Positions 23,470-53,215 of a stretch of DNA of 64,000 bases are shown in pieces (the first letter of the stretch is position 1; each line of letters starts with the position of its first letter). The stretch is from assembly GCF_902833145.1 (NCBI RefSeq), contig NZ_CADFEN010000012.1, forward strand, positions 207,147 through 271,146, written 5' to 3'. This stretch comes from Burkholderia sp. BCC0506. Lineage in GTDB: Bacteria; Pseudomonadota; Gammaproteobacteria; Burkholderiales; Burkholderiaceae. The position numbers and the translations under genes were made by a program. Under the pieces are notes generated by a model, which did not search any database, was not told the origin of the DNA, and saw only the letters and a list, made by a program, of their open reading frames with translations.

Positions 23470-24810
23470 TCATTGAAGCTCGACGCGGCGGATCTCGCCG
23501 ACGACGAACAGGTAGCAGATCACGGCGACGAGCGCGTGCGCGACGACATAGACGAGCGCGCCGTTGAACGAGCCGCTGCGATCGACGATATAGCCGATCG
23601 CGATCGGCGTCGTGATGCTGGAAAGGTTGCCGCACGTGTTGAGCAGCGCGCCGCTCAGGCCGGAGATCTGGCGCGGCGCGGTGTCGGCGTTGACGGCCCA
23701 GCCGAGCGCGCCGAGCCCCTTGCCGAAGAACGACAGCGCCATGAACAGCACGACGAGCACGTGTGAATCGGTGTAGTTGCAGACGATCATCGACATCGAC
23801 AGCAGCATGCCGATCACGATCGGCACCTTGCGCGCGACCGACAGCGACCGGCCCTGTCTGAGCAGCGCATCGGACACGACGCCGCCGAGAATCCCGCCGA
23901 GAAAGCCGCACACCGCCGGGATCGACGCGACGAGCCCCGCGTTGAGGATCGACATCCCGCGCGCCTGTACGAGATAGACGGGAAACCACGTGATGAAGAA
24001 GTAGGTGAGCGCGTTGATGCAGTACTGCGCGACGTACACGCCGACCAGCATCCGGTTTCGCAGCAGCGCCTTCACGTGGCGCATCGACGGGCCGCCCTGG
24101 CGCCCGCCCGCCGCCTGGTCGATGTTGACGAGCGCGCCGCCTTCGGCGAGGTAGTCGAGTTCGGCGCGGTTGATGGTCGGGTGGTCCTTCGGGTCGTACA
24201 TCGTGCGGTTCCACACCAGCACGAACGCGAAGCCGAGCACACCCATCACCGCGAACACCGACTGCCAGCCGAACGCGTGCACGAGCCAGCCCATCAGCGG
24301 CGCGAACACGACGGTCGCCGCGTACTGCGCGGCGTTGAAGATCGCCGACGCGGTGCCGCGTTCGGGCGCCGGGAACCACGCGGACACGATCCGGCTGTTG
24401 GCCGGGAACGACGGCGCCTCGGCCGCGCCGACCAGGAAGCGCAGCCCGAACAGCAGCGCGAACGCGGCCGCGCCGCCGAAGAAGCCGATCCCGCCTTGCA
24501 GCAGCGTGAACAGCGACCAGAAGAAGATGCTGCATGCATAGACGATGCGCGATCCGTAGCGGTCGAGCAGCCAGCCGCCCGGCAGTTGCGCGATCACGTA
24601 CGACCAGCCGAACGCGGAAAAGATGAAGCCCATCTGCACGTGGCTCAGGTGCAGCGCGCGGGCGAGGCTGGGCCCCGCGATCGCGATCGCCGCGCGATCT
24701 GCGTAGTTGATCGTCGTGACCGCGAACAGCACGGCCAGCACCAGCCAGCGCACGCGGGTGCGCCGGGCCGTTGCCGACGCGGACGCCGGCAGCGCGTGAA
24801 GCGGATTCAT
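23470..24810 (-). CDS. gudP: MFS aldarate (glucarate/galactarate) transporter, GudP-like
   Basis: A 446-residue major facilitator of the anion:cation symporter family with twelve helices. It begins after a 20-residue tail at [29 protein letters not shown], the family's helix-1 signature, and contains [10 protein letters not shown] between helices 2 and 3. Pairing with gudD identifies D-glucarate/galactarate as the likely substrate. The ribosome site GGAGGAGACA lies just before ATG 24810 (24815-24824) and is exactly complementary to the small RNA at 38.78 kb, so post-transcriptional repression is predicted. Confidence 0.9.
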
Positions 24811-24982
24811 GACGTGTCTCCTCCGAAGGGCGGAAGGTGCCGTCGGGCGGCAGGCGCGTCGGTGCGCGCGTGATGTATTGGGATGCCGCCGGCGCGAGGC
24901 CGGGCACCGGACGCCGTGCAGACGGTGCGTCCGGGCCATTCTGTCACGTCGACATTTGCGCTTTCATGCCAATTGCTGACTT

Positions 24983-38742: not shown

Positions 38743-38771
38743 TTGCATTGCGGAAACCGATTCGCTATAGT
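38743..38771 (+). promoter_or_regulatory. Sigma-70 promoter of the small RNA
   Basis: TTGCAT (38743-38748), a 17-bp spacer and TATAGT (38766-38771). This is one of the best promoter matches in the window and stands alone between convergent genes, immediately before the small RNA. Confidence 0.82.
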
Positions 38772-38775
38772 GACA

Positions 38776-38837
38776 CCTGTCTCCTCCATGTCTCCTCTGA
38801 TATGGATTCAGCCCGCCGCTTAGGCGGGCTTTTTTTT
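38776..38837 (+). ncRNA. Small RNA with tandem anti-Shine-Dalgarno motifs (NcS27-like)
   Basis: A predicted RNA of about 60 nt. Its 5' half is unstructured and CU-rich, with two copies of TGTCTCCTC (38778-38786 and 38789-38797); the 3' half is a Rho-independent terminator. Promoter, length and terminator fit an Hfq-type trans-acting RNA that blocks ribosome binding sites. Perfect complements occur before the indolepyruvate oxidoreductase (12 nt) and gudP (10 nt) starts, with 8 nt before hppD and the first twin lipoprotein gene. A CU-rich short RNA of this sort, NcS27, has been described in B. cenocepacia; orthology is from memory and unverified. The exact 5' end is uncertain by a few nt. Confidence 0.75.
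38810..38837 (+). terminator. Terminator of the small RNA
   Basis: An 8-bp stem AGCCCGCC (38810-38817)/GGCGGGCT (38823-38830) with a 5-nt loop and a run of eight T. Confidence 0.92.
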
Positions 38838-38883
38838 GCCTGCGATTGTGTCGCGGCGCGCCATCCGCCGGCTGCCGCCGCGC

Positions 38884-39732: not shown

Positions 39733-40974
39733 TTACTGGACGAATGCGCCGATCGTGAAATACGGCGTCGATCCCGCGTTGTCGAGGAAACCGAACACGC
39801 CACCCGTGAAGATGAACTTGCCGGTCGGCGACGTGCTGCCCGAACCCGTGTGGATCGTCGTGACCGTGCCCGGCACCTTCTGCGTGTAGTCGAGATCGAG
39901 CGCGGTCGCGAGCGACGCCTGCGACGGCTGGAACGGATCGAGCAGCGTGGCCTGCTTGTCGATCAGCGCGGTGGTCCGGTAATCGAACTGGCTGTCGACG
40001 CCGATGTACTCGCCGTTTTGCGAGCCGGCCGCGATGGCCGTCTGCGGCGCGAGGATCGAGATGCTCGATTCGTCGTCGGCGGTCAGACCCGGCACGCCGT
40101 TGCTGTCGGGCGTCGGGTTCGGGTTCGCGACACCCGTGCGCACGAGGATCGGCACGAGCTGGTTGCGCAGCTTGCCGACGATCATGAAGCCCTTGCCCTG
40201 CGGCGTGGCCGACAGCGTCGGCTTCAGCTGGCTCGCGTAGTTGTTCGACTGGAACGCGCCGCTGCCGTCGGCCGACTGCACGAAGTTCGTGCCCTGCTGC
40301 ACGCACGCGCCGCCCGCGAACTGGCCGGTCGTGTCGCATTTGGTCCACGTGCCGTCCGCGTTGATCGTCACCTTCGCGTCGATCGACGCCGGCGCGAATT
40401 TCTGCGACGGCACTTCGCCGAAGCCGATGTGGCTGTACGTGCCCGCAACCTTCGTGATGTCGGTTTCGATCGACGAGAAGCCGATGAACGGGTAGTACGG
40501 GAATTTCGTGTCGGGCACCGCGGCCTGGCCGAGCACGCCGTCGAACTGGATCTCCTTGCCGGGAATCGTGCCGCCCGCGACGCCGAAGCCGACGAAGATG
40601 CGCGCCGGACGCGACGCGTCGAGGCTCGCGCCGTTCAGGCGGAACGCGCACTGGTTCAGCTTGTTGGTCGGCAGCAGCGTTTCCTGCGTGAGCGTGCCGC
40701 TGTCGACGGTGCCCGCGCGGGTCGGCGTGACGGTGCCGGTCTTTTGCGGCACCGCCGATTCGACATAGGTGACCTGCCAGGTCATCTTGGTCGTGTCGAG
40801 CTGGACCTTCGCGAGTTCGCCGCTGCCCGCGCCGCCCGTAAACACGGTGTTGTAGTCGAGCGTGGCGGGGCAAAGCCGGTCTTCGACGAGCGGGGGCGGA
40901 TTGTCGCTGCCGCCGCCGCATGCGGAAAGAAGGGGGGCGGCAAGGGCCGCCGCCAGAATGAGGTTGCGCTTCAT
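39733..40974 (-). CDS. DUF2957-type lipoprotein (second paralogue)
   Basis: A 413-residue secreted lipoprotein: signal peptide with lipobox SACG (Cys at about 19) and a GGGS linker. The beta-rich mature part shares blocks with the neighbour's product: LCPATLDYN, TGGAGSGELAKVQLDTTKMTWQVTYVES, PQKTGTVTPTRAGT, CAFRLNGA, FVGFGVAGGTIPGKEIQFDG and a C-terminal STPYFTIGAFVQ. I match it to DUF2957 from memory; no function is known. Secretion next to OmpW implies an outer-membrane assembly. Confidence 0.8.
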   Translation of the reverse strand: MKRNLILAAALAAPLLSACGGGSDNPPPLVEDRLCPATLDYNTVFTGGAGSGELAKVQLDTTKMTWQVTYVESAVPQKTGTVTPTRAGTVDSGTLTQETLLPTNKLNQCAFRLNGASLDASRPARIFVGFGVAGGTIPGKEIQFDGVLGQAAVPDTKFPYYPFIGFSSIETDITKVAGTYSHIGFGEVPSQKFAPASIDAKVTINADGTWTKCDTTGQFAGGACVQQGTNFVQSADGSGAFQSNNYASQLKPTLSATPQGKGFMIVGKLRNQLVPILVRTGVANPNPTPDSNGVPGLTADDESSISILAPQTAIAAGSQNGEYIGVDSQFDYRTTALIDKQATLLDPFQPSQASLATALDLDYTQKVPGTVTTIHTGSGSTSPTGKFIFTGGVFGFLDNAGSTPYFTIGAFVQ

Positions 40975-41121
40975 GTTGCTCCTCCAGATTTGTCTTGTGC
41001 GGCGGCCAGCTCCCTGTCGGCCGCTTCTGTTTGGTCGTGCTCGTCCTGCTTGCGCCGTGCCGAGCGCCTTCGTGCCATCCCTGCGTCACGCGGCGGCGGG
41101 CCGGCCGCCGCCGCGTCCCCG

Positions 41122-42552
41122 TTACTTGCTGATCTGCGCGCCCACGCCGAAGTACGGTGTCGACGACGTCGTCGAATTCGCCGACGTCGACGTGACGCCG
41201 CCGTTCACCGTGCCTTGGATCAGCGCCGCGTACAGCCCGCCCGTCGCGATCACCACGCCCGATGCGGACGGGTAGCTCGCGCCGCTCGGCGGGGTGGTCG
41301 TCGTGTTCAGCAGGCCCGGCGTCGTCTGCCCGTAGTCGAGCGTGAAGCCGTCTTCCTCGGCCTGCGTGGACGGGTTGATGAACGACGCGTTGCTGCCGCG
41401 GATCAGCGCGGCCGTGTACTTGAAGTTCGAGTCCGCGCCCGCGTAGCCGCCGTCGATCGCGCCCGACGTGATCGCCGTCGCCGCGCCGAGCACCGCGATG
41501 CCCGATTCGTCGTCGACCTTTGCATCGGTGTGCAACGGCGCCGTGCCGAGGTTCACATAGCCCGTGCGCACGATCACCGGCACCGTCGCGCCGTTGAGCT
41601 GGCCGATCACCATGTGCGCGGTGGCCGACTTGCCGGTCGCGCCGATCAGCGGCAGCTTCGTTTGCGGCAGGATCTGCGGGGCCTGCGTGCTGTCGAGGTA
41701 GCCGCCGGCCGCTGCATTCACCGTCCACGGATTGCCGGTCGTCTGGCAACTGCCGGAGGACGACGTGCACGCGCCGTTCGCATCGAACGTCTCGCTGGAG
41801 TTGATGCCCTTCGTCGCGTAGTTGCCCGACGGCACGAGGTGATAGATCAGCGCGTTGTACGTGCCCGGCAGCTTCGTCAGGTCGGTCGTCGTGTTCGCGA
41901 AGCCGAGGAACGGATAGAAGTCGAAGTGGCGATTGGGCACCTGGCCGACGTTCTGGAATACCGGGAGGCCGACCACGCTGATCGTCAGCCCGTCGTACTG
42001 AACCGTCGCGCCGGGAATGCCGCCGCCCGCCACGCCCATGCCGACCAGCAGCATCGGCGGGTTCGCCTGGTTGAAGTCGGCGGCCGTCGAATAGGTCGAG
42101 CCGTCCGGTGCGGTGCCCGTGCCCGGCGTGAGGACGAACGCGCAGCGCGTCTGCTCGGCGGTCGGCAGCGTGCCGGTCGGCGGGTGGACGACCTTGCCGG
42201 TGATCGTCGTGCCGGCGCGGCTCGGCGTGACGGTGCCCGTCTTCAGCGGAATCGGCGATTCGAGCCACTTGAGCGTGTACGTCATCGCGACCGCGTCGAT
42301 GTTGACGCTGACGATCTCGCCGCTACCCGCGCCGCCGAGGTACGTGCTCTTCACGATGTCCGCGGTGGCCGGGCACAGTGCGCCGTTGATGGGCTGCGAA
42401 GGCGGCGGCCCTTGCGTGCCGCAGCTCGAGCCGGAACATTGGGGCGCATTGATCGGCGCGAGCGCGCCGCCGGAGTCCCCCCCACCACATGCAACCAGGA
42501 AAGGGGCAATGGCAAAGGCCGTTGCCACCCCCTTCGATAAGGCGTGCGACAT
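41122..42552 (-). CDS. DUF2957-type lipoprotein (first paralogue)
   Basis: A 476-residue lipoprotein (signal peptide ending VACG, then GGGDSGG) with a Cys-containing linker (PQCSGSSCG). The same conserved blocks as the downstream paralogue appear in order: LCPATADI, LGGAGSGEIVSVNIDAVAMTYTLKWLES, PLKTGTVTPSRAGT, CAFVLTPGTG, LVGMGVAGGGIPGATVQYDG, ending TPYFGVGAQISK. The genes arose by tandem duplication and diverged. Its ribosome site GGAGACAG lies 6-12 nt before the start and is complementary to 8 nt of the small RNA at 38.78 kb. Confidence 0.8.
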   Translation of the reverse strand: MSHALSKGVATAFAIAPFLVACGGGDSGGALAPINAPQCSGSSCGTQGPPPSQPINGALCPATADIVKSTYLGGAGSGEIVSVNIDAVAMTYTLKWLESPIPLKTGTVTPSRAGTTITGKVVHPPTGTLPTAEQTRCAFVLTPGTGTAPDGSTYSTAADFNQANPPMLLVGMGVAGGGIPGATVQYDGLTISVVGLPVFQNVGQVPNRHFDFYPFLGFANTTTDLTKLPGTYNALIYHLVPSGNYATKGINSSETFDANGACTSSSGSCQTTGNPWTVNAAAGGYLDSTQAPQILPQTKLPLIGATGKSATAHMVIGQLNGATVPVIVRTGYVNLGTAPLHTDAKVDDESGIAVLGAATAITSGAIDGGYAGADSNFKYTAALIRGSNASFINPSTQAEEDGFTLDYGQTTPGLLNTTTTPPSGASYPSASGVVIATGGLYAALIQGTVNGGVTSTSANSTTSSTPYFGVGAQISK

Positions 42553-52200: not shown

Positions 52201-52886
52201 TCGATGTCGACCGACGCCGACGATTCGACGACGTCCGTCACGCACTTGAGTGCGACCCACAGGCCCGAGTAGCGGCTCATCGCCCAGCCGTGCAGGCCGA
52301 AATCGAGATATTCCTGCACGTTGGACGGGAACAGCACCGGCAGCCCGCAGGCCTTGAAGATGTGTTCGGACTGGTGCGCGAGCGTCGACGATTTGGCCGC
52401 GTGGTCGTCGCCGGCGAGCACCAGCACGCCGCCGTGCTGCGACGAGCCGGCCGAGTTCGCGTGCTTGAAGACGTCGCCGGTGCGATCGACGCCCGGGCCT
52501 TTGCCGTACCACATGCCGAACACGCCGTCGTATTTCGCGCCCGGGTACAGGTTCACCTGCTGCGAGCCCCACACGGCGGTGGCGGCGAGGTCTTCGTTGA
52601 GGCCGGGCTGGAAGACGATCTGGTGGGCGGCCAGGTGCTGCTTGGCTTTCCAGAGCGACAGATCGAGGCCGCCGAGCGGCGAGCCGCGGTAGCCGGAGAT
52701 GAAGCCGGCCGTATTGAGACCGGCGGCGCGGTCGCGTTCCTGCTGGAGCATCGGCAGGCGCACGAGGGCCTGGATGCCGCTCATGTACGCGCGGCCGCGT
52801 TCCAGCGTGTATTTGTCGTCAAGCGTGACGGACTTCAGCGCGGCTTCTAGCGACGCGCGTTGGTCTGCGTCTAGCGGGGCATTCAT
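49296..52886 (-). CDS. Indolepyruvate ferredoxin oxidoreductase, fused alpha/beta (iorAB type)
   Basis: A 1196-residue thiamine-diphosphate/iron-sulfur enzyme that oxidatively decarboxylates aryl pyruvates (indolepyruvate, phenylpyruvate) to aryl-acetyl-CoA. The N-terminal alpha part has FISGYRGSPLGGLD; TPP binding is in the middle (CPHNTSTNVPEGSRAIAGIGCHY, FANLGDGTYFHSG). A cysteine cluster at about 655-705 (CEGCGDC, then CNKDFSC and CVKGFC-type residues) holds the Fe-S centre, and the gamma domain follows (VTGVGGTGVVTIGALLG). A fused single chain is usual in proteobacteria. The product phenylacetyl-CoA is the paa epoxidase substrate. Its ribosome site GGAGGAGACA (52891-52900) matches the small RNA over 12 nt. 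Confidence 0.94.
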   Translation of the reverse strand: MNAPLDADQRASLEAALKSVTLDDKYTLERGRAYMSGIQALVRLPMLQQERDRAAGLNTAGFISGYRGSPLGGLDLSLWKAKQHLAAHQIVFQPGLNEDLAATAVWGSQQVNLYPGAKYDGVFGMWYGKGPGVDRTGDVFKHANSAGSSQHGGVLVLAGDDHAAKSSTLAHQSEHIFKACGLPVLFPSNVQEYLDFGLHGWAMSRYSGLWVALKCVTDVVESSASVDIDPHRTEIVLPTDFILPEGGLNIRWPDPPLVQEARLLDYKWYAALAYVRANKLDRIEIDSPHARFGIMTGGKAYLDVRQALIDLGLDDETCARIGIRLYKVGCVWPLEAQGAQAFARGLDEILVVEEKRQILEYAIKEELYNWPDAQRPRVFGKFDEKDGAGGEWSVPMGNWLLPAHYELSPAIIAKAIATRLEKFELPSDVRARIAARLAVINAKEMALAKPHVQTERKPWFCSGCPHNTSTNVPEGSRAIAGIGCHYMTVWMDRNTSTFSQMGGEGVPWIGQAPFTDEKHVFANLGDGTYFHSGLLAVRAAISSKANITYKILYNDAVAMTGGQPVDGVLTVPQITHQLASEGAKKIVIVTDEPEKYDSQKALLAPGVTIHHRDQLDDVQRELREIEGTTILIYDQTCATEKRRRRKRGTYPDPAKRVVINEAVCEGCGDCSVQSNCLSVEPLETEFGTKRQINQSSCNKDFSCVKGFCPSFVTVEGGQLKKPKAVSVDGSALPPIPEPTLPTIDRAYGVLVTGVGGTGVVTIGALLGMAAHLENKGVTVLDVTGLAQKGGAVMSHVQISHAPTDIHATRIAMGEADLVIGCDAIVTAGDECTSRMRHDATRVVVNSAQTPTAEFIKNPNWAFPGLSAENDIRAAAGVAVDFIDANRFAVALLGDAIYTNPFVLGYAWQKGWLPLTLASLERAIELNAVSVEKNRAAFDWGRRAAYDLASVKQAAAGDARPAQGATVISLHTKKAVDALIAKRVEFLTAYQNAAYASRYAAFVDKVRAAERALADGDAAQEPLTEAVARNLFKLMAYKDEYEVARLQSDPAFLARLTVQFEGDWKLTFHLAPPLFAKTDAHGHLVKKTYGPWMMSAFRLLAKAKFLRGTALDPFGRTTERRTERALIGEYEALIDEVLTRLNAANRPLALELAALPDGIRGYGHVKENNLRAVRQKWDTLLAKWRSPAGGQSHQQVA

Positions 52887-53215
52887 TGACTGTCTCCTCC
52901 ACCCGGTCTGGGATCACCAAAACTTCGGTTGCATCGGCATCTTTTGGACGCGTCTGCAGTGGCCGGCATGTTCGCCGGTTTTAAGGGATGGTAGCACTGG
53001 GGCAAACCCGCCGCCCATCGGTTGCAACGCGGTGGATGCGCGGCGGCGCGCCGAGAAATCGGGCCCGATCGTGCGTTACATCATGTAAAAGCATGTAAAG
53101 CCGCGTTGATCTGCCGGCAAATGCCGTTAATCTTGTCGGCCTGCCGGAGGTGCCCGGCCGCGTCGGGTCGTTTCGACGCAATCGGGGAGGCGCCGGCAGT
53201 TTTACAGGAGGTGCA
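52887..53215. promoter_or_regulatory. Divergent control region with the palindrome TTACATCATGTAA
   Basis: 329 bp between the divergent indolepyruvate oxidoreductase gene and a small secreted-protein gene. TTACATCATGTAA (53076-53088) is a perfect palindrome around a central C, and a further GCATGTAAA follows at once (53092-53100), giving three TGTAA-type half sites. This looks like an operator for a dimeric regulator. At the left end is the ribosome site that can pair with the small RNA; at the right end, ACAGGAGGTG before 53216. Confidence 0.55.

What the first reader, a model, noticed from the sequence alone, without database searches (positions are those of the whole stretch)
38743..38838. 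Stand-alone small RNA gene with two tandem anti-Shine-Dalgarno motifs
A strong promoter (TTGCAT-17 bp-TATAGT), about 60 transcribed nt and a textbook terminator lie in a gap with no protein gene. The 5' half has TGTCTCCTC twice, 11 nt apart, so one RNA could bind two messages or use two registers. The motif is the complement of an extended ribosome binding site, so it should repress translation of many genes. A CU-rich RNA of this sort (NcS27) is known from B. cenocepacia; I cannot confirm orthology or whether the tandem motif has been studied.
Basis: partly seen in the sequence, partly recalled or inferred. Interest (0 to 1): 0.85.

Follow-up and report, generated by a model that had tools for sequence, protein, structure and literature searches.

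The report
Known sRNA, likely storage-polymer controlled
This is a real but already described small RNA gene of Burkholderia that probably blocks the ribosome-binding sites of metabolic messages; what looks new is that many of its relatives across the Betaproteobacteria carry, on top of their promoters, the kind of DNA site recognised by the repressor that senses stored carbon polymer.

Summary
Window 38778-38837 is a 60-nt RNA gene: two copies of TGTCTCCTC 11 nt apart, a -35/-10 promoter and a terminator. It matches Rfam RF02278 (Betaproteobacteria toxic sRNA) full length, 75.3 bits. Synteny and length make it the ortholog of B. cenocepacia ncS03, not NcS27. Both CU-rich motifs are already in print (ncS03, S17), so the given finding is known. 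Two perfect 10-nt matches elsewhere in the window are the ribosome-binding sites of a galactonate transporter and an indolepyruvate oxidoreductase.

The new part is the promoter. The -35 of many RF02278 genes overlaps TGC-RNY-GCA, the PhaR/PhbF operator type. Among 105 Burkholderiales genomes (best copy each) it lies within 300 nt upstream in 59 of 76 with PhaR and 2 of 29 without; in the 76 held-out genomes 36 of 49 and 2 of 27. I infer that PhaR, which leaves DNA for PHB granules, represses these sRNAs; two papers left that regulator open. The window copy is one base off (GCG), so the inference is weaker there. Nothing was tested at the bench.

The parts
38778..38837 (+). RF02278 double-hairpin sRNA, ortholog of B. 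cenocepacia ncS03
   Evidence: Rfam 75.3 bits against cut-off 50; gene order LysR -> sRNA -> <- OmpW as in B. cenocepacia
38778..38786 (+). Site 1: 5' anti-Shine-Dalgarno TGTCTCCTC (first 7 nt single-stranded, last 2 in the stem)
   Evidence: sequence; fold
38789..38797 (+). Site 2: second TGTCTCCTC, 4 nt in the stem and 5 in the loop of hairpin 1
   Evidence: sequence; fold
38785..38806 (+). hairpin 1 (loop 38793-38798)
   Evidence: minimum free energy fold; Rfam consensus structure
38810..38837 (+). terminator hairpin and T-run
38743..38748 (+). -35 element TTGCAT
   Evidence: TTGC at this place in 112 of 117 loci with the exact core
38766..38771 (+). -10 element TATAGT
   Evidence: TATAGT or TATACT in 101 of 117
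38744..38752 (+). PhaR-type operator, here TGC-ATT-GCG, one base off TGC-RNY-GCA, overlapping the -35
   Evidence: at this place TGC..GCA 84, TGC..GCG 27 of 117 loci
24815..24824 (-). predicted target: Shine-Dalgarno GGAGGAGACA of a D-galactonate transporter family gene (start codon at 24810)
   Evidence: GAGGAGACA in 29 of 30 fetched genus loci; TIGR00893 454 bits against cut-off 395
52891..52900 (-). predicted target: Shine-Dalgarno GGAGGAGACA of an indolepyruvate ferredoxin oxidoreductase family gene (start codon at 52886)
   Evidence: of 30 fetched genus loci the start was found in 27: GGAGACA in 18, GGAGACT in 9; NF009588 548 bits on a 300-residue piece, cut-off for the whole protein 952; no Pfam match on that piece

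Best explanation
The locus makes a ~60-nt trans-acting sRNA of family RF02278 (ncS03). SHOWN here: family membership, predicted structure, conserved promoter and terminator, and perfect 10-nt complementarity of its 5' end to two ribosome-binding sites in the same window. SHOWN BY OTHERS for relatives: a transcript in B. cenocepacia, slower growth on overexpression of NcS27, Hfq dependence and translational repression of one target by B. pertussis S17. INFERRED: in this strain the 5' UGUCUCCUCC pairs with the Shine-Dalgarno of carbon and amino-acid uptake and catabolism messages and blocks ribosome entry, with the second motif in hairpin 1 as auxiliary or alternative contact. INFERRED and new: the family is repressed by PhaR, bound over the -35, and is released when PhaR is drawn onto PHB granules, so that carbon storage switches off further uptake and catabolism. 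My odds: identity 0.97, anti-Shine-Dalgarno repression 0.85, PhaR control of the family 0.7, PhaR control of this particular copy 0.5.
For: Identity: (65 of 65 genus genomes, 3-7 matches each). Targets; Sass 2017 lists galactonate transporters among predicted targets (passages). PhaR: operator TG[N]TGC[N]3GCAA footprinted for PhbF in Herbaspirillum (passages). TGC-RNY-GCA within 300 nt upstream: held-out genomes PhaR+ 36 of 49, PhaR- 2 of 27 (Fisher 2.7e-8); with the discovery set 59 of 76 and 2 of 29; family-by-status units 16 of 18 and 2 of 10, p 5e-4. Six control 9-mers 0-2 per group; held-out shuffles mean 2.8, maximum 11 of 49, against 36 observed. Positive control: 27 of 30 phasin upstream regions carry the same 9-mer, controls 0-2 of 30. 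Geometry: of 49 PhaR+ genomes with TTGC-RNY-GC, 33 have TANNNT 16-18 bp after a TTGC(NN) hexamer (27 of the 33 at 17, my count of the list); 4% at random places. Where TTGC stands 17 bp before a [TG]ANNNT, GCA fills the right half-site in 25 of 40 PhaR+ genomes and 2 of 23 PhaR- genomes. Precedent: PhaR (AniA) binds the promoter of the sRNA MmgR in S. meliloti (passages). Expression: ncS03 8.0-fold and ncS05 6.9-fold up in glucose medium; in this genome their likely counterparts are the two copies with the motif over the -35, the window copy one base off.
Against: The window copy has GCG, not GCA, in the right half-site, and no strict site within 300 nt. 17 of 76 PhaR+ genomes lack the strict 9-mer; 9 of the 17 keep GC-RNY-GCA, but so do 3 of 29 PhaR- genomes, and that form was drawn after looking. 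Two of 29 PhaR- genomes have the 9-mer, and the looser TGC-N3-GCA occurs in 6 of 29 PhaR- (62 of 76 PhaR+). Genomes are not independent; no tree-based test was run. In this genome the NcS27-like and ncS62-like copies have the 9-mer only at -276 and -135, not over a promoter, which shows that stray matches occur, and NcS27 too is induced in glucose medium, 4.3-fold. Only 10 of 28 phaR genes have the 9-mer within 400 nt upstream (one short locus of 29 dropped). Scans of the own genome did not single out a regulon. In the R. eutropha work as quoted the PhaR site was described as unrelated to the TGC type. GGAGGAG is ribosome-site-like whatever follows (28 of 50 other GGAGGAG places in 119 related loci precede ATG or GTG), so 8 of 10 non-sRNA places with an ATG says little about specificity. 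Folds of the 76 held-out sRNAs vary: the first CTCCTC is at least 5/6 unpaired in 25 and the second CTCCT at least 3/5 unpaired in 41 of the 64 that have it.
Confidence: 0.7

Rival explanations
1. A known RF02278 sRNA whose promoter is regulated by another factor that reads TGC-RNY-GCA, or whose TTGC is only a -35 element; no link with PHB.
For: TTGC is placed as the start of a -35 in most cases, also in PhaR-less genomes (23 of 29 have TTGC 17 bp before [TG]ANNNT); the S17 preprint found its promoter active in vitro without BvgA (passages).
Against: The right half GCA is not part of a -35 and follows phaR: 25 of 40 against 2 of 23 genomes with such a promoter; phasin promoters share the 9-mer; PhbF was footprinted on it.
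Confidence: 0.25
2. Broad 'toxic' RNA that titrates Shine-Dalgarno sequences or ribosomes without chosen targets.
For: The motif is the complement of a general ribosome-binding site; the family is reported to inhibit growth in E. coli, and NcS27 overexpression attenuates growth of B. cenocepacia.
Against: The conserved 5' UGU extends the complementarity beyond the Shine-Dalgarno core; S17S overexpression did not impair exponential growth of E. coli; 92 genes rise without S17 (abstract).
Confidence: 0.12
3. Only the terminator of the upstream LysR gene, not an independent RNA gene.
For: LysR ends 78 bp upstream on the same strand.
Against: Conserved -35/-10 and 5' region; ncS03 is listed as a separate RNA from dRNA-Seq in the same gene order; a LysR hit was found in 33 of 119 related loci (the loci are cut 8-kb pieces, so part of the misses is truncation).
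Confidence: 0.02

Closest known systems
ncS03 (RIT100) of B. cenocepacia J2315
   Same: family RF02278, 58-59 nt, gene order -> -> <- between BCAL0197 and BCAL0198; in B. cenocepacia NCTC13227 (L076) the same RNA lies between LysR 97% and OmpW 95% identical
   Different: base changes in the promoter and terminator against L076; J2315 itself was not compared letter by letter
NcS27 (also RF02278)
   Same: same family, CU-rich sites, metabolic targets
   Different: paralog; 92 nt with a leader that can be processed off; its likely counterpart here has CCCUCCUCC in place of the second UGUCUCCUC and no operator over its promoter
S17 of Bordetella pertussis
   Same: Site 1 and Site 2; published -35 TTGCAT with 17-bp spacer
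   Different: 190-nt precursor cut by RNase E; repressor only postulated
NmsR sRNAs of Neisseria (RF02877 is NmsRb)
   Same: two CU-rich stretches against ribosome-binding sites of metabolic genes
   Different: tandem genes; the window RNA scores 21.9 bits against a cut-off of 52
MmgR of Sinorhizobium meliloti
   Same: sRNA whose promoter is bound by PhaR (AniA)
   Different: another class of bacteria; acts on phasin levels; relation of the RNAs was not tested here

Membership tests
Rfam RF02278 Betaproteobacteria toxic sRNA | covariance model score above gathering cut-off, full length | tested here: met
   75.3 bits, cut-off 50, positions 1-64 of 64
Rfam RF02278 Betaproteobacteria toxic sRNA | two hairpins, second an intrinsic terminator | tested here: met
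Rfam RF02278 Betaproteobacteria toxic sRNA | growth inhibition when expressed in E. coli | not testable with these tools
   reported for the family; Kimelman 2012 itself is not held
ncS03 ortholog | same gene order and neighbours as in B. cenocepacia | tested here: met
NcS27 ortholog | leader and processed form of NcS27 | tested here: not met
   the window copy has no leader; own-genome copy L003 fits NcS27 by length and layout instead
PhaR regulon | TGC-N3-GCA operator at the promoter | tested here: inconclusive
   family level met in most PhaR+ genomes; window copy TGC-ATT-GCG, one base off
PhaR regulon | phaR encoded in the genome | tested here: met
   PF07879, one match, E 5.4e-31
PhaR regulon | binding by PhaR and derepression by PHB | not testable with these tools
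   needs EMSA or footprint and a phaR deletion

The most novel reading that the evidence does not exclude
The RF02278 sRNAs of Betaproteobacteria are a conserved output of the PHB sensor PhaR: polymer granules titrate PhaR off an operator that overlaps the sRNA -35, and the released anti-Shine-Dalgarno RNA shuts carbon and amino-acid uptake and catabolism. PhaR would then be the unnamed repressor of the B. pertussis S17 promoter and the unnamed regulator of the Burkholderia double-hairpin RNAs, and the circuit would parallel PhaR-MmgR of rhizobia.
Probability: 0.65. Interest if true: 0.7.

Novelty: new member of a known kind. Interest (0 to 1): 0.5.

Why it matters
The sRNA alone is known. The operator link would give a regulator for an sRNA family found at E <= 0.001 in 188 of 300 Burkholderiales genomes, would fit its rise in glucose medium, and turns two questions left open in print (what regulates the accumulation of the double-hairpin RNAs; what represses the S17 promoter) into one simple test. 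None of the four held papers that name RF02278 was seen to make the link: PhaR, PHB, polyhydroxy and phasin have no hit in PMC5688073 and PMC11722255; PMC7011215 has no PhbF hit and its one PHB hit is a reference (PhaR was not searched there); of the two 'phar' hits of PMC4603805 the one seen is 'Pharmaceutical'. A wider search for PhaR, sRNA, polyhydroxybutyrate, Shine-Dalgarno and phasin (at least 4 of 5 terms) listed 19 papers, of which I opened passages of PMC8401924, PMC11332829 and PMC5760752 only; most subscription papers are not held, Sass 2019 on NcS27 among them.

Tried and rejected
Whole-genome motif scans in the own genome did not separate a regulon: TTGCRNYGCANCA 50 places against 46 for the reversed pattern; TGCRNYGCACMAW 34 against 14, three rows of which are at the phasin promoter and one at the ncS05-like sRNA. 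I looked at 30 of those 34: 27 lie in some stop-to-stop frame of over 150 codons, the phasin and sRNA sites included, so that check does not discriminate. A mobile origin of the sRNA was considered: no match in the phage collection; 34 plasmid records match (Paraburkholderia 16, Caballeronia 12, Burkholderia 5, Cupriavidus 1), none over 80% of the query, many of the 20 listed on replicons of megabase size. Anti-hemB (RF02837) is a sub-threshold match only, 28.2 against 49.5. Ribosome-site enrichment of GGAGGAGACA was not pursued because GGAGGAG alone is ribosome-site-like. My first motif form (TTGCRNYGCA or TGCRNYGCAA) gave held-out 26 of 49 and 2 of 27, p 5.4e-5 (five control patterns 0-1 of 76); I then moved to the 9-mer TGCRNYGCA, after seeing that result and the two sites at the own phasin promoter and because the published core is TGC-N3-GCA; the wider GCRNYGCAVMA (63 of 76, 1 of 29) is post hoc. 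The test uses 105 of the 114 over-cut-off genomes: the own genome and 8 whose places were not printed were left out. The phasin control used 30 loci out of 98 genomes with a match, three of them short, where the upstream place may be off.

Full report
OBSERVATION. Rfam places 38778-38837 in RF02278, Betaproteobacteria toxic sRNA, 75.3 bits against a cut-off of 50, full length. The fold is far more stable than shuffles (z -6.3): the first seven bases are free, the second motif lies in the stem and loop of hairpin 1.

WHICH ONE IT IS. The own genome (7.29 Mb, 45 contigs) has six matches, four over cut-off. Lengths and layout fit the four J2315 copies of PMC4603805 and PMC5688073 (passages seen): 60 nt here against 58-59 for ncS03, 68 against 67 for ncS05 (L001), 62 plus a leader of about 30 against 92 for NcS27 (L003), 58 against 57 for ncS62 (L004). 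The neighbours LysR (+) and OmpW (-) give the published arrow order of ncS03, and both flank the same RNA in B. cenocepacia NCTC13227 at 97% and 95% identity. So the gene is the ncS03 ortholog; the assignments of L001, L003 and L004 rest on length and layout alone.

CONSERVATION. 65 of 65 genus genomes (own included) have 3 to 7 matches. In 117 of these with enough upstream DNA the -35 begins TTGC in 112, the -10 is TATAGT or TATACT in 101, and a T-run follows in 117. In the order, 188 of 300 genomes have a match at E <= 0.001 and 114 pass the cut-off; 0 of 14 control genomes do.

TARGETS. The two other TGTCTCCTC places in the window are both, on the opposite strand, the Shine-Dalgarno GGAGGAGACA of a gene: a D-galactonate transporter family MFS protein and an indolepyruvate ferredoxin oxidoreductase family protein. 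Predicted duplexes with Site 1 are -19.7 and -20.3 kcal/mol, with Site 2 -16.9 and -17.0 (site opening cost not counted). The transporter site is kept in 29 of 30 genus loci, but its surroundings are nearly as conserved; the oxidoreductase site reads GGAGACA in 18 and GGAGACT in 9 of 27. In the whole genome the 10-mer is found at 15 places: 5 in sRNA copies and 10 elsewhere, 8 of the 10 with ATG 0-8 nt downstream. As GGAGGAG is ribosome-site-like in itself (28 of 50 other places), this supports but does not prove targeting. Sass 2017 predicted galactonate transporters as targets, and NcS27 was reported to affect phenylalanine and tyrosine catabolism and carbohydrate transport (review PMC10987360, passages; Sass 2019 not held).

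WHAT IS IN PRINT ON THE TANDEM MOTIF. PMC5688073 (passages): both CU-rich regions of ncS03 take part in a predicted duplex with BCAL3043; overexpressed NcS27 slows growth. PMC11722255 (abstract, sections 12 and 13, passages): 70 of 92 genes raised without S17 match single-stranded regions called Site 1 or 2, one was repressed in a lacZ assay, and the RNA is Hfq-dependent.

STRUCTURE ACROSS THE FAMILY. All 76 held-out sRNAs keep the first CTCCTC; 64 keep a second CTCCT. In single minimum-energy folds the first is at least 5/6 unpaired in 25 of 76 and the second at least 3/5 unpaired in 41 of 64. In many members the last bases of the first motif pair in hairpin 1, as they do here.

THE PROMOTER. 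Comparing upstream regions showed a motif that runs beyond the -35: TTGC-RNY-GCA. It is the core of the PhbF (PhaR) operator TG[N]TGC[N]3GCAA footprinted in H. seropedicae (PMC3206438, passages). I then took one best sRNA copy from each of 105 Burkholderiales genomes (29 seen while the motif was noticed, 76 fetched afterwards) and asked for phaR (PF07879) in the same 300 genomes (203 have it). TGC-RNY-GCA lies within 300 nt upstream in 23 of 27 PhaR+ and 0 of 2 PhaR- of the first set, and 36 of 49 and 2 of 27 of the held-out set. One of the two PhaR- exceptions, G187, is 85% complete and belongs to a family whose other tested member has phaR; the other site is 237 nt upstream. Control 9-mers give 0-2 per group; shuffles give on average 1.0 of 27 and 2.8 of 49. 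By family and phaR status, 16 of 18 PhaR+ units and 2 of 10 PhaR- units have the motif in at least half of their genomes. Within family f4, 8 of 8 PhaR+ genomes have it and the one PhaR- genome does not. Of 49 PhaR+ genomes with TTGC-RNY-GC, 33 have it placed as a -35. Among genomes with TTGC 17 bp before [TG]ANNNT, the right half-site is GCA in 25 of 40 with phaR and 2 of 23 without: the -35 is often kept where phaR is missing, the operator's right half is not.

POSITIVE CONTROL. 27 of 30 phasin upstream regions carry the 9-mer; by my count from the listing 14 of 30 have two sites 54-59 bp apart. The own phasin has two, 59 bp apart. The ncS05-like copy L001 has TGC-GTC-GCA at -34 and a one-base-off TGC-AGT-GCG at -88, 54 bp apart. 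phaR itself has the 9-mer upstream in 10 of 28.

MECHANISM. PhaR is described as a repressor of phasin genes that leaves DNA for nascent granules (PMC11332829, passages). Laid over the -35 of an anti-Shine-Dalgarno sRNA it would couple storage to a stop on further uptake and catabolism. This agrees with induction in glucose medium, 8.0-fold for ncS03 and 6.9-fold for ncS05. It also offers a candidate for the repressor that the S17 authors postulate, their published -35 being TTGCAT at 17 bp; G301, an unnamed order member, shows TTGCATCGCACAAAA with TACTAT at 17 bp. In S. meliloti PhaR binds the promoter of the sRNA MmgR (PMC12542648, passages), so the kind of circuit is known in another class.

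LIMITS. No binding or expression data were available here. The window copy has GCG in the right half, as do 27 of 117 close relatives. 17 of 76 PhaR+ genomes lack the strict motif. Genomes share ancestry and no tree was used. The NcS27-like and ncS62-like copies of the same genome have the 9-mer only far from their promoters, at -276 and -135, and NcS27 is induced in glucose medium all the same.

Noticed in passing
own genome G000:C10:1-108 and C17:1-99 (L004, L005): Two contigs begin with the same 98-nt end of a transposase-like gene (ISL3 type by recall, not tested) joined directly to the T-run of the terminators of two different RF02278 copies; an insertion element seems to land in these terminators.
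   Followed up: partly
G000:C16:93536 (L167): A gene whose product looks OmpW-like by eye has GGAGGAGACA before its start; the gene convergent to the window sRNA is also an OmpW family gene.
   Followed up: no
window 39733-42552, minus strand: Two neighbouring lipoprotein-like genes next to OmpW; the first is DUF2957, the second looks similar by eye. Function unknown.
   Followed up: no
G000:C17:100-168 and C5:517904-517956 (L005, L006): Two sub-threshold RF02278 matches (42.5 and 32.6 bits), possibly decayed or divergent copies.
   Followed up: no
G071, G273, G303 (family f8): Some order members carry several RF02278 matches (G071 nine), each of these three with a listed pair 215-378 bases apart.
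   Followed up: no
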